A DNA stretch of 64,000 bases, from NCBI GenBank assembly GCA_022791055.1, contig JAAVYI010000016.1:1-64000 (forward strand). The letters are read 5' to 3'. The notes beneath the pieces are model-generated. The model saw nothing but the letters and a program-made list of their open reading frames with translations, was not told the DNA's origin and ran no database searches. The first letter of the stretch is position 1, and every line of letters begins with the position of its first letter. Source of the DNA: Clostridia bacterium. Lineage in GTDB: Bacteria > Bacillota > Clostridia > Christensenellales > Pumilibacteraceae. Shown here one piece after another: positions 5,081-29,277 of this stretch. A program made the position numbers and the translations under genes.

Positions 5081-5352
5081 GCTGTGCTAGGCGGGGAGCC
5101 AGCGGTGCCCTGTACCCACAATCCGCTACAGTGGGGCTGAACGCCGCTCGAGGCGCGCCGTATGGAAAGCTGTTACCGATAAGTGGTGTCGATCGTAAGG
5201 TCTTGTGCAACGATATACTGTGAACCGTGTCAGGGCCTGACCGCAGCAGCACTAAGCAGACCATAGCGTGTGCCACAAGGTAGCTTTACGGGAGCTAACT
5301 GTCGGGAGAACGTTTCGGTATGACGTGTCGAAAGCGGATGCACAGTTTTTTT
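5081..5352 (+). ncRNA. ffs: Signal recognition particle RNA, large (Alu-containing) bacterial type
   Basis: This is the RNA scaffold of the signal recognition particle, which binds Ffh and brings nascent membrane proteins to the Sec translocon. Visible are the Alu-domain start GTGCTAGGCGGGGAGCCAGC and GGTGCCCTGTACCC, as in Bacillus scRNA. The Ffh-binding helix 8 core GTCAGGGCCTGACCGCAGCAGC lies near 5228-5250, with GTGCCACAAGGTAGC and GAGCTAAC after it, and a 3' end that pairs back (GCACAG) before seven T. The length of about 270 nt fits the Gram-positive large form. It has its own promoter and reads toward ilvB. Confidence 0.93.
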
Positions 5353-22953: not shown

Positions 22954-25665
<2,712 letters not shown>

Positions 25666-25669
25666 GCTT

Positions 25670-26461
25670 TTAATTTGCCTCCGTGGCCGCCTCGTAACGG
25701 CCTAAAAATTTTAAATATCCGGTCTGCCGGCTCAACACGTCGAGCACGTGCAACAGTTCCTCTTTGTCCCCGCCGAACAGAAAATCGACGAAAAATATAT
25801 ACCGTCCCATCGCCCCTTTTTTGGGTCGGGATTCGATGTGTACCATGTTCAGCCCGAAATCGGCGATGACCGTCAGCGCCTTTAACAGCGCGCCCGGCGC
25901 GTTGACCGTTTCAAACATCACGCTGACCTTACCGCCGACAGTCGACGGCGTATTTTTCAAAAGCACGAAACGCGTCGCGTTGTTGGCGTAGTCCTCGATG
26001 TGTTCGGCCAACACCTTTTGCCCCGGCCGCGCACAACGCGCGATCGCGCCTGTTGTCGAGTCGGTCACGCGCTGCAAGCCCTCGCTCGTCGAGGCGACCG
26101 CCACGCTTTCCAGCCCCGCACGCTCGAGATAGGCGCGGCACTGGCTCAAGGCCTGCGGGTGCGAATATACCGTTTTGACCGTCTCCGGCCGCGCGTCCGC
26201 CGTCCCGATCAAGCAATGTTCGATCGGCAGCACCGTTTCGGCCGCCATGTAGACCGGCAGAGCCGTCAGCGCGTCCAAGCACTCGCGCACCGAACCTTCG
26301 ATGCTGTTTTCGATCGGCACGGCCGCCGCTTGCGTCTCGCCGTTTGCGACCGCCTCGACCGCCGCGGTAATGCTCTTGTACGGTTTTAAGTCGACGCCGC
26401 CGAACCGCTGCGCCGCCAAAAACGAATGCGAATACTCGTCGCCCAAATATGCAATGTCCAT
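25670..26461 (-). CDS. pheA: Prephenate dehydratase
   Basis: Converts prephenate to phenylpyruvate in phenylalanine synthesis. The product has 263 residues: a catalytic domain (MDIAYLGDEYSHSFLAAQRF, ENSIEGSVRECLDAL, and the YANNATRFVLL motif with the essential Thr-Arg-Phe), then a regulatory ACT domain with VNAPGALLKAL and the Phe-binding ESRPKKG. It is monofunctional, with no chorismate mutase domain. The ATG shares one base with the TGA of the Rho-like gene (TGATG), and secA starts 4 bases later. Confidence 0.95.
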   Translation of the reverse strand: MDIAYLGDEYSHSFLAAQRFGGVDLKPYKSITAAVEAVANGETQAAAVPIENSIEGSVRECLDALTALPVYMAAETVLPIEHCLIGTADARPETVKTVYSHPQALSQCRAYLERAGLESVAVASTSEGLQRVTDSTTGAIARCARPGQKVLAEHIEDYANNATRFVLLKNTPSTVGGKVSVMFETVNAPGALLKALTVIADFGLNMVHIESRPKKGAMGRYIFFVDFLFGGDKEELLHVLDVLSRQTGYLKFLGRYEAATEAN

Positions 26462-27684
26462 CAGAGGCGCGTCACCTGCTCGAACAGACTGCGGTTTCCC
26501 TCTTGCGCGGCCTTAGCGCGCAGCGCAGCGATTTCGGCCGACTCGTGCACCGAGCCGGTCAGCGAAAAGTCGGGGATCCATTCGCCGCCGTCGGCAGTAA
26601 GCGCCAACTCGCAATCGGCGAAACCGCGCAACAGCCCCAGCTTGTCCGTCGGCAACGCCTCAGCGTTGATCGTCGCGGCCACCGTCAGCGCGCCGCCGTT
26701 GGTGTAGGCCGCCGGCACGCTCAAAAGCCGCACTGCGTCCTGCATGTCGCCGGTCTGGGTGGCGTACTGCAAATTGTACACACACAGCAACACTTTTTTG
26801 CCCATGGTCGCCAGCAGTTCGGCGCGCGCGCAAGCCGTTTCCATGGCTTCGAACGCAAAGTCCGCCGGTACGTTCCCCTCGACGACCTCCGCGCCCGCCT
26901 CCCGGATCGCGGCGCGGGCGTCTGCCGGCGGCGTCAGGTACAGGCCGATCACTTCGGTCTCCGGCGAAAGCTGTTTCCACTTGTTCGCCAGGTTTAACAG
27001 CAGCGCGGGCGAACGGTATTTCGCCGGGTGCGAGATCAATAGACTGTCGCCCTCGCGCGGCGCGCACAGCGCGTCGACGGCGCGCAGCATGGCGTCGTTA
27101 TCGTCCCAAACGCTGACAGGCGGCTGCGGCTCGGCCACTTCCGGCACAGCCGCGCGCGGCGCGCCCGGTTTCTGCCCGTTGACCGAAATGATGTCGATCA
27201 GCGCCAGCAAATCGAGTTTATCGTAATACATATACCGCCCGACGATGTAATCGCCTTCGAGCAGCCCGTATTTTTTGATCACCGAATCGATGACGAGGAC
27301 GTCCTCCGAACACGGCACATACGACGCGCCGATATAGCCGTCGCGCCCGCAGACGTGGAAAACGCCTTTGGTCGCAAGCCCCCCGGTCACCGCGCCCTTT
27401 CCCTCATAGGAAAAAATTTCGTAGCGGTGGTCGGGCATGATCAGCTTCTCGCACACCCGCACGTACTGTTTATTGCGCTGGGGGATCTTCTCGTTGATCT
27501 TCAACCCGTTGACGATCGGATATAAATCGGCAACGATACGGTCACGGTTGTTGTATTTTGTCACGTGCAACCCTAGCAGCTTGCCGACGTTCTTCAGTTC
27601 GACCAACGACAATTCTTCCAATCGCGGCAAAACGTATTCTTCTTCTTCAAACTTGTACTTCGCAGCTTTCGCGTGTCTGCCCAT
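26461..27684 (-). CDS. Rho-like protein lacking ATPase motifs (pseudo-Rho)
   Basis: The 407-residue product follows the domain order of transcription terminator Rho. A Rho_N-like helix bundle (about 20-56, LEELSLVELKNVGKLLGLHV) is followed by an RNA-binding cold-shock-like domain (about 97-172; GAVTGGLATKGVFHV, GYIGASYV, YGLLEGDYIVGRYM, DIISVNGQKP) and a RecA-like domain (about 195-385). The RecA-like part aligns by pattern, but Walker A (APPKAGKTTLL in Rho) is SHPAKYRSPALL at 218-229, Walker B (ILLDSITRL) is LLCVYNLQY, and the Q-loop region is shortened to about 20 residues. ATP hydrolysis and translocation are therefore unlikely. The start at 27684 has GGAGG upstream. It leads the pheA-secA operon. 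Confidence 0.78.
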   Translation of the reverse strand: MGRHAKAAKYKFEEEEYVLPRLEELSLVELKNVGKLLGLHVTKYNNRDRIVADLYPIVNGLKINEKIPQRNKQYVRVCEKLIMPDHRYEIFSYEGKGAVTGGLATKGVFHVCGRDGYIGASYVPCSEDVLVIDSVIKKYGLLEGDYIVGRYMYYDKLDLLALIDIISVNGQKPGAPRAAVPEVAEPQPPVSVWDDNDAMLRAVDALCAPREGDSLLISHPAKYRSPALLLNLANKWKQLSPETEVIGLYLTPPADARAAIREAGAEVVEGNVPADFAFEAMETACARAELLATMGKKVLLCVYNLQYATQTGDMQDAVRLLSVPAAYTNGGALTVAATINAEALPTDKLGLLRGFADCELALTADGGEWIPDFSLTGSVHESAEIAALRAKAAQEGNRSLFEQVTRL

Positions 27685-27761
27685 ACTTCCTCCGTCTCGA
27701 CTGTAAACAATTTCTATAATAGCCATTATACTACAAAAATCAAGATAATGCAAGCGTATGA

Positions 27762-27801
27762 AAGAAAAACCTGCCTGAAAATGTCCGTAACCTCAGGCAG
27801 G
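27762..27801 (-). terminator. Intrinsic terminator after the ABC-F gene
   Basis: CCTGCCTGA and TCAGGCAGG pair. On the minus strand the stem runs into TTTTTCTTT. Confidence 0.85.
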
Positions 27802-27819: not shown

Positions 27820-29277
27820 TCAATCCAAACGTATCGATCCCGTCGCCACGCGTTCGACAAACGCCGCGTCGTGTTCGACAAAGACAAGCGTCGGACGGAA
27901 CGTAACGATCAGCCGCTCGATCTGCCTGCGGCTCGGCATATCGACGTAGTTGAGCGGCTCGTCCCAAACGTATACATGCGCGCGCGTCGAGAGCGACAGC
28001 GCCAACGCCGCCTTTTTCCGCTCGCCCAAACTCATGTGACAAAAGTCGGTCGCGCGCAGTTCGGGGCGCATACCCAGTTGCACCAAAAGCGCGGTGACGA
28101 CGGACGGATCGGCGCCGACCGCCTCGCACTGTCGTTGCAGCGGACGGTCGAACATCGGCTCCTGCGGCACATAGGATACGACCAAATCGGACGGCCGCCG
28201 CAAACTGCCTGTCACCGTCGCGTCGCCCACGCCGACCAAACTTTTTAACAGCGTCGATTTGCCGCAACCGTTGCCGCCGACGACGGCCAGCCGCGCGCCG
28301 CGCTCGATCCTGACCGCAATATCGTCTAAAACTGTATGCGCCCCGTAAGCCGCCGTAATGCGCCCGTTGACGAGCGTTTGGCTGCGGAACGAAAGCGGGT
28401 ACAACCGAATGTCGATCTCGGTTTCGGCGTCGCGCAAAAGCGCCCGTTTTTCTTCCGCCGCCCGCTCGATCCGCTTTTCCAGCACCGTTGCCGCCTTCAT
28501 CATCTTGGCCGCCTTGTGTCCGACGGCGCCGCGATCGGCTTTTAAGCCGCTGGCTTGCACGCCGAATTTGCTGCGTTCGGCCTTGATCGCATGTTCGTGC
28601 CGCGCGTCCGCCGCACGGTCGAGGCGGTCGATCTCGCGGCGCAAACGTTCGTTTTCGATGCGCTCGTTACGTTCGCGCGCGTCGACGTCGTTTAAGTACG
28701 ACGAGCAAGTCCCCGCCGTAAGCGTTACCCCGCTGCGCGTAACGGCCAGCACATGGTCGATGCAAGCGTCCAAAAACGCGCGGTCGTGCGATGCCAAAAT
28801 AAACCCGCGCTTACCCGCCAAATATCGCGCCACCGCCGCGCGGCCGCGCAAGTCGAGCGAATCGGTCGGCTCGTCGATCAGCCGAAACGCATCGACGGCG
28901 AACATGCCGGCAAGCTGTACGCGCGTTTTTTGTCCGCCCGACAGCGACTTAAGCGGCCGGTATAGAAGATCCGCCACGCCCAAAAGATCGGCCTCACGCA
29001 CGATCTCCCACTCCTCGCCGCCGTAGCGCGCCGCCGCCTCGAACGCCGTTTTGCCGTTCGCCTCGTCGACCGAAAAGCGCACCGTCGGGATCGGCACGGC
29101 AATGCTGCCCTTGTATCCGTCCAACGCGCCGTCAAGCAACTTCAACAGCGTCGTTTTGCCCCGACCGTTGCGCCCGATCAAGCCCGTTTTCCAACGCTCG
29201 TCGAGCGCAACCGTCACATGGTCGAAAATATTGTCCTGCCCGGCATACCCGAACGTCAATCCATTGATTTGTATCAT
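27820..29277 (-). CDS. ABC-F ribosome-protection ATPase (antibiotic-resistance type)
   Basis: A soluble protein of 485 residues with two ABC domains and no membrane helices. Domain 1: Walker A GRNGRGKTTLL (35-45), signature LSGGQKTRVQLAGMF, Walker B LIDEPTDSLDL. A charged linker of about 80 residues (from DRAADARHEHAIKAERSKFG) follows. Domain 2: GGNGCGKSTLL, signature MSLGERKKAALALSL, VWDEPLNYVD and VEHDAAF. ABC-F proteins bind the ribosomal E site and displace antibiotics such as lincosamides, pleuromutilins or streptogramins A. The resistance class is supported by the upstream four-codon ORF and attenuator hairpin. The exact drug range cannot be read from the sequence. Confidence 0.88.
   Translation of the reverse strand: MIQINGLTFGYAGQDNIFDHVTVALDERWKTGLIGRNGRGKTTLLKLLDGALDGYKGSIAVPIPTVRFSVDEANGKTAFEAAARYGGEEWEIVREADLLGVADLLYRPLKSLSGGQKTRVQLAGMFAVDAFRLIDEPTDSLDLRGRAAVARYLAGKRGFILASHDRAFLDACIDHVLAVTRSGVTLTAGTCSSYLNDVDARERNERIENERLRREIDRLDRAADARHEHAIKAERSKFGVQASGLKADRGAVGHKAAKMMKAATVLEKRIERAAEEKRALLRDAETEIDIRLYPLSFRSQTLVNGRITAAYGAHTVLDDIAVRIERGARLAVVGGNGCGKSTLLKSLVGVGDATVTGSLRRPSDLVVSYVPQEPMFDRPLQRQCEAVGADPSVVTALLVQLGMRPELRATDFCHMSLGERKKAALALSLSTRAHVYVWDEPLNYVDMPSRRQIERLIVTFRPTLVFVEHDAAFVERVATGSIRLD

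What the first reader, a model, noticed from the sequence alone, without database searches (positions are those of the whole stretch)
26461..27684. A Rho paralogue that has lost its ATPase motifs, leading a pheA-secA operon
Seen: a 407-residue protein with Rho domain order (Rho_N-like bundle, cold-shock-like RNA-binding domain, RecA-like domain). The Walker A lysine/threonine are gone (SHPAKYRSPALL), the Walker B aspartate is gone (LLCVYNLQY), and the Q-loop stretch is shortened. The frame is intact over 1.2 kb, with a ribosome binding site, and its stop overlaps the pheA start, so it is kept by selection rather than decaying. Known: Rho needs ATP hydrolysis to move on RNA. Inferred: this protein may bind RNA or the Rho/NusG complex as a decoy, antiterminator or regulator of its own operon. 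I do not know of a described function for such a pseudo-Rho.
Basis: partly seen in the sequence, partly recalled or inferred. Interest (0 to 1): 0.8.

Follow-up and report, generated by a model that had tools for sequence, protein, structure and literature searches.

The report
Motorless Rho, the genome's only Rho
In a family of uncultured gut Clostridia the only copy of the transcription-termination motor protein Rho has lost every part of its ATP-driven motor, yet the gene is kept intact by selection in front of secA, which suggests that Rho has a second, motor-independent job.

Summary
The gene is on the minus strand (27684 to 26461). It encodes an intact 407-residue protein whose only significant matches are to Rho, and P-loop, Walker B, Q-loop, R-loop and arginine finger are gone. 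The interpretation needs revising. It is not a paralogue: the 97%-complete genome has no other Rho, and none of 61 genomes of its family has a Rho over the curated cut-off. So it cannot be a decoy for a working Rho. A motorless Rho was detected in 34 of the 61 genomes and in 12 of 18 genera. It lies next to secA (often Rho-pheA-secA-prfB) even where the proteins share only 15-30% identity. dN/dS in one genus is 0.08-0.22, like the neighbouring pheA, and lowest in the N-terminal plus OB half. A relative folds confidently (pLDDT 85) and its best PDB match is Rho. Motor erosion also occurs in other families of the order, nested among canonical Rhos; elsewhere in the class, sampled Rhos were full-scoring or absent. 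Most likely it is an ATP-independent nucleic-acid or RNAP-binding factor that can no longer translocate. That role is inferred. Canonical primary-site aromatics are also eroded, and a purine-bias test was uninformative.

The parts
26461..27684 (-). motorless Rho (407 aa): sole Rho homologue of the genome
27499..27627 (-). N-terminal helix-extended-helix (Rho_N/SAP-like) region, residues about 20-62; holds near-invariant R31, G38, K47 and L50 of the family
   Evidence: alignment A1; Rho_N matched weakly in 3 of 21 members
27175..27375 (-). OB (Rho RNA-binding) fold, residues about 104-170; fold core kept, most primary-site aromatics lost
26590..27102 (-). RecA-like domain, residues about 195-365, with motor elements lost
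   Evidence: relative modelled
26998..27033 (-). position of the lost Walker A (SHPAKYRSPALL, residues 218-229)
26776..26793 (-). position of the lost Walker B (VLLCVY, residues 298-303), followed by the Q-loop deletion
27725..27730 (-). TATAAT, candidate -10 element of the operon
   Evidence: read; the consensus scan listed other, overlapping candidates, so not firm
27689..27693 (-). GGAGG ribosome binding site
   Evidence: read
27770..27801 (-). hairpin followed by a T tract; probable intrinsic terminator of the upstream ABC-F gene, separating it from this operon
   Evidence: -18.1 kcal/mol, z -3.0
25670..26461 (-). pheA (prephenate dehydratase); start overlaps the Rho stop
22954..25665 (-). 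secA

Best explanation
SHOWN: this is the lineage's own and only Rho, inherited with its N-terminal, OB and RecA-like layout but without the ATPase and RNA-translocation machinery, and kept by purifying selection in an operon with secA. INFERRED: it works as a static, ATP-independent nucleic-acid and/or RNA-polymerase-binding factor. The basic N-terminal helix-extended-helix region plus the OB fold would contact nucleic acid (and perhaps NusG/RNAP), with the RecA fold reduced to a scaffold. It would modulate elongation or RNA fate without translocating along RNA. Rho-dependent termination by translocation is absent in this family.
For: Only Rho in the genome, and no Rho over the cut-off in 61 family genomes. 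A motorless homologue was found in 34 of 61 genomes and 12 of 18 genera. None of 21 aligned members keeps a P-loop, all lack the Q-loop and R353 columns, and no consistent replacement active site is seen. dN/dS is 0.08-0.22 overall, similar to PheA (0.07-0.20); N-terminal plus OB half 0.05-0.15, RecA half 0.10-0.31. Adjacency to secA is conserved across f1 genera, while canonical rho loci are not beside secA. A model of a genus g8 homologue has pLDDT 85 and its best PDB hits are Rho. The N-terminal region is on average basic (+2.6) against acidic (-6.1) in canonical Rho. NusG is present. Published background: E. coli Rho contacts RNAP and NusA in an open ring without RNA engagement before any translocation (summarised in PMC9908020).
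Against: Primary-site residues equivalent to E. coli F62 and F64 are lost in almost all members, and P0001 also lacks the Y80 and R66 equivalents, so canonical pyrimidine recognition is doubtful. OB and RecA regions are slightly acidic. No direct evidence for RNA, RNAP or NusG binding, or for oligomerisation. Several family genera (g2, g4, g5, g16, g18) have no detectable copy and g10/g13/g17 have shortened ones, so the function is dispensable. The window protein itself gave only a low-confidence single-sequence model (pLDDT 41).
Confidence: 0.5

Rival explanations
1. Operon-specific regulator: the protein binds its own pheA-secA(-prfB) transcript and sets secA expression, as an autoregulatory RNA-binding protein.
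For: Position next to secA, often with a translationally coupled pheA between, is conserved across f1 genera while the protein diverges to 15-30% identity.
Against: pheA-secA persists in genera without the protein (G001, G004, G019, G021). Shared operons are common for unrelated genes. No conserved leader RNA was found (Rfam found none here), and in genus g8 the transcript looks leaderless.
Confidence: 0.15
2. Slowly dying relic: a Rho that became dispensable and is on the way out (intact, motorless, shortened, lost), with residual constraint only from operon structure or solubility.
For: A graded series exists in the order. Shortened copies occur in g10/g13/g17 and absence in g2/g4/g5/g16/g18. 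Very long branches.
Against: Intact frames in many genomes, dN/dS 0.08-0.22 similar to PheA, and stronger constraint on the N-terminal/OB half. The fold is kept. A pure relic would not be expected to hold over a dozen genera.
Confidence: 0.2
3. Still a terminator: it binds ATP at a non-canonical site, or inactivates RNAP allosterically without translocation, so Rho-like termination persists.
For: Fold kept. Published models include an allosteric, pre-translocation stage of Rho action (PMC9908020).
Against: No conserved replacement for the ATP site, Q-loop or R-loop in 21 members. Genomic purine bias, a published signature of Rho pressure, does not separate groups here, so it gives no support either way.
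Confidence: 0.08
4. Sequencing or assembly artefact, or a decayed second copy of a normal rho.
For: The named relatives are metagenome-assembled genomes.
Against: Same motor loss in 21 aligned members from independent genomes, no canonical rho in 61 family genomes, and selection on the frame.
Confidence: 0.02

Closest known systems
Transcription termination factor Rho (TIGR00767, PF07497/PF07498; E. coli and Thermus structures)
   Same: Domain order, OB fold above the Pfam cut-off, RecA-like fold (best PDB match of a modelled homologue), descent.
   Different: No P-loop, Walker B Asp, Q-loop, R-loop or arginine finger; primary-site aromatics mostly lost; scores 25 bits against a cut-off of 509.
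NCBIfam paralog_Rho2 (short-form Rho, NF041509)
   Same: A non-standard Rho that NCBI names separately.
   Different: P0001 scores 24.8 bits against a cut-off of 628, and it is the only Rho here, not a second copy. Whether Rho2 keeps its motor was not tested.
Complete loss of rho in some Bacilli (PMC13323073)
   Same: A Gram-positive lineage without translocating Rho.
   Different: There the gene is described as lost; here the protein is kept without its motor.

Membership tests
Rho termination factor | Score over curated equivalog cut-off (TIGR00767, 509 bits) | tested here: not met
   25.3 bits
Rho termination factor | Rho RNA-binding (OB) domain PF07497 | tested here: met
   28.9 bits, cut-off 27; 20 of 21 homologues
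Rho termination factor | RecA-like ATPase fold | tested here: met
   Homologue model pLDDT 85, best PDB hits Rho at E 1e-15; window protein itself only low-confidence, best hit Rho at E 8e-7
Rho termination factor | P-loop GxxxxGK[ST] | tested here: not met
   SHPAKYRSPALL; 0 of 21 f1 members keep it
Rho termination factor | Walker B Asp and catalytic Glu | tested here: not met
   Y303 at the Asp column, P at the Glu column
Rho termination factor | Q-loop and R-loop (secondary RNA site), arginine finger | tested here: not met
   Q-loop columns deleted in 21 of 21; R353 column absent; no Arg at the finger column
Rho termination factor | Primary RNA site residues (F62, F64, R66, Y80 equivalents) | tested here: not met
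   P0001 has gap, Y, G, L
Rho termination factor | Hexamer, RNA-stimulated ATPase, termination | not testable with these tools
   needs biochemistry
Second Rho copy (paralogue) | A canonical rho elsewhere in the genome | tested here: not met

The most novel reading that the evidence does not exclude
Rho has a selected, motor-independent function. In this order the motor was discarded, probably several times, while the rest of the protein was kept as an ATP-independent transcription or RNA factor: the first pseudoenzyme form of Rho.
Probability: 0.5. Interest if true: 0.85.

Novelty: new variant of a known kind. Interest (0 to 1): 0.72.

Why it matters
Rho is described as an RNA-dependent ATPase motor. 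A lineage that keeps its sole Rho under selection after losing the motor separates the motor from whatever else Rho does, and offers a natural test of ATP-independent steps of Rho action on RNA polymerase. The order also holds intermediate stages. In family f14 some members keep P-loop and Walker B but lose the Q- and R-loops; in f8 the P-loop lysine is lost first. The path of erosion can therefore be followed.

Tried and rejected
Paralogue or decoy: rejected, no other Rho. Artefact: rejected. Purine-bias readout of Rho activity (method idea from PMC13323073): purine fraction at four-codon-family third positions was 0.503 in 19 canonical-Rho genomes, 0.484 in 21 motorless and 0.510 in 18 other f1 genomes, with wide overlap (p 0.57 and 0.40). 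Canonical members of this order show no strong bias, so the test is uninformative; the lower values of f14/f4 degenerate genomes (0.44-0.47) are few and related. AU tests for a single origin of motor loss did not reject one clade (p 0.17 and 0.24), although f4g21 sits inside f4 with 100% support. Independent losses are therefore likely but not proven; long branches. The first genome-contig scan with P0001 found nothing; the full family alignment was too divergent to use. Alignment A3 of P0001 with g8 proteins was visibly misaligned and was not used for the model.

Full report
Observation. The gene lies on the minus strand at 27684-26461 and encodes 407 residues without interruption. It starts with ATG after GGAGG, its stop overlaps the pheA start by one base (TGATG), and secA follows. 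Upstream, a strong hairpin with a T tract (27801-27770) probably ends the ABC-F gene. An exact TATAAT lies about 40 bases before the start codon, though a consensus scan listed other overlapping candidates instead. The gene therefore probably heads its own operon.

Relatedness to Rho. Sequence searches find Rho and little else: Pfam Rho_RNA_bind above its cut-off, three NCBIfam Rho models far below theirs, and Rho as the only PDB relative. Of 21 homologues, 20 match Rho_RNA_bind. A genus g8 homologue modelled on 12 sequences reached pLDDT 85, and its 50 best PDB matches are all Rho (best E 1.3e-15, TM 0.63). The window protein folded alone gave a poor model (pLDDT 41), but its best matches were also Rho (E 8e-7).

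Not a paralogue. The genome (2.17 Mb, 97% complete) has no other Rho by TIGR00767 or Rho_RNA_bind; the other weak TIGR00767 hits cover only its ATPase part. None of 61 genomes of the family has a Rho over the cut-off. A profile of the motorless proteins finds them in 34 of 61 genomes and 12 of 18 genera. Named relatives include 'Candidatus Protoclostridium' and other uncultured Clostridia, among them MAGs labelled as chicken, 'Lapin' and roe-deer-caecum samples.

Motor loss. In 19 canonical Rhos of the order, P-loop K184/T185, Walker B D265, R269, R353 and the arginine finger are invariant. In 21 family members none keeps a P-loop, the Q-loop and R353 columns are deleted in all, and the Asp column holds Asp in 3. 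What is kept is structural: GD in the OB fold, the glycine before the P-loop strand, the GSxT strand, and the N-terminal helix-extended-helix. Primary-site aromatics are also mostly lost, so RNA binding in the canonical manner is not assured.

Selection and neighbourhood. Among genus g8 species dN/dS of the motorless Rho is 0.08-0.22, like PheA (0.07-0.20); its N-terminal plus OB half is the more constrained (0.05-0.15 against 0.10-0.31 for the RecA half). dS is near or above 1 in all pairs, so ratios are approximate. The order Rho-pheA-secA or Rho-secA, often followed by prfB, recurs across the family. Canonical rho genes of other families are not beside secA. Genera without a detectable copy may keep pheA-secA.

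Spread of the phenomenon. In 198 genomes of the order, 163 have a Rho match and 117 are over the cut-off. Graded erosion occurs in f14 genus g31 (G073 intact; G201, G220 and G190 with P-loop but no Q-loop; G179 with neither), in f4 genus g21, f26, f27 and f28, and partly in f8. On a tree, f4g21 nests inside f4 with full support and f1 forms one side of a branch; AU tests did not exclude one origin. In a sample of the class, Rho was either full-scoring or not found at E 1e-14 outside this order, apart from one contig-end fragment (G350); the other sub-threshold hits cover only the ATPase part. Strongly eroded copies could be missed at that threshold.

Mechanism. Without nucleotide-binding, hydrolysis or translocation elements, translocating Rho-dependent termination is excluded on established knowledge of the enzyme. 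The best remaining reading is a static nucleic-acid or RNAP-binding factor; the target is unknown. NusG, the usual partner, is present in the same window. Published structures show Rho touching RNAP and NusA before RNA engagement (PMC9908020), so a motor-free contact is plausible but not shown here.

Novelty. Searches of the held open-access library found no described motorless Rho; that library misses most subscription papers. The published contrast is outright loss of rho in Bacilli (PMC13323073).

Noticed in passing
L042:8190-8230 and the other genus g8 loci (L031, L035, L037-L041, L043), just upstream of the Rho-like start: TATAAT or a near match (TATACT) lies a few bases before the start codon (GTG in nearly all) with no clear ribosome binding site in most genus g8 loci, so the motorless Rho mRNA there looks leaderless.
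   Followed up: partly
L081, L084, L085 (f14 g31): Rhos that keep a P-loop and Walker B Asp but lack Q-loop and R-loop: possible ATP binders without translocation.
   Followed up: partly
L076 (f8, G067): Rho with near-complete RNA loops but P-loop PPKTDPTT and Gln in place of the catalytic Glu: the opposite order of loss.
   Followed up: no
L249, L252, L246, L257: Shortened motorless Rhos (about 240-340 aa) beside secA in genera g17, g10 and g13.
   Followed up: partly
L090 (f27), L032 and L033 (f1): Degenerate Rho next to a P-type (E1-E2) ATPase gene in f27 and in two f1 genera, hinting at a shared ancestral locus.
   Followed up: no
window 27820-29277 (-): ABC-F protein nearest to the Lsa family, below the curated cut-off (452 against 750 bits).
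   Followed up: no
window 5082-5345 (+): Bacterial large SRP RNA, 182.7 bits.
   Followed up: no
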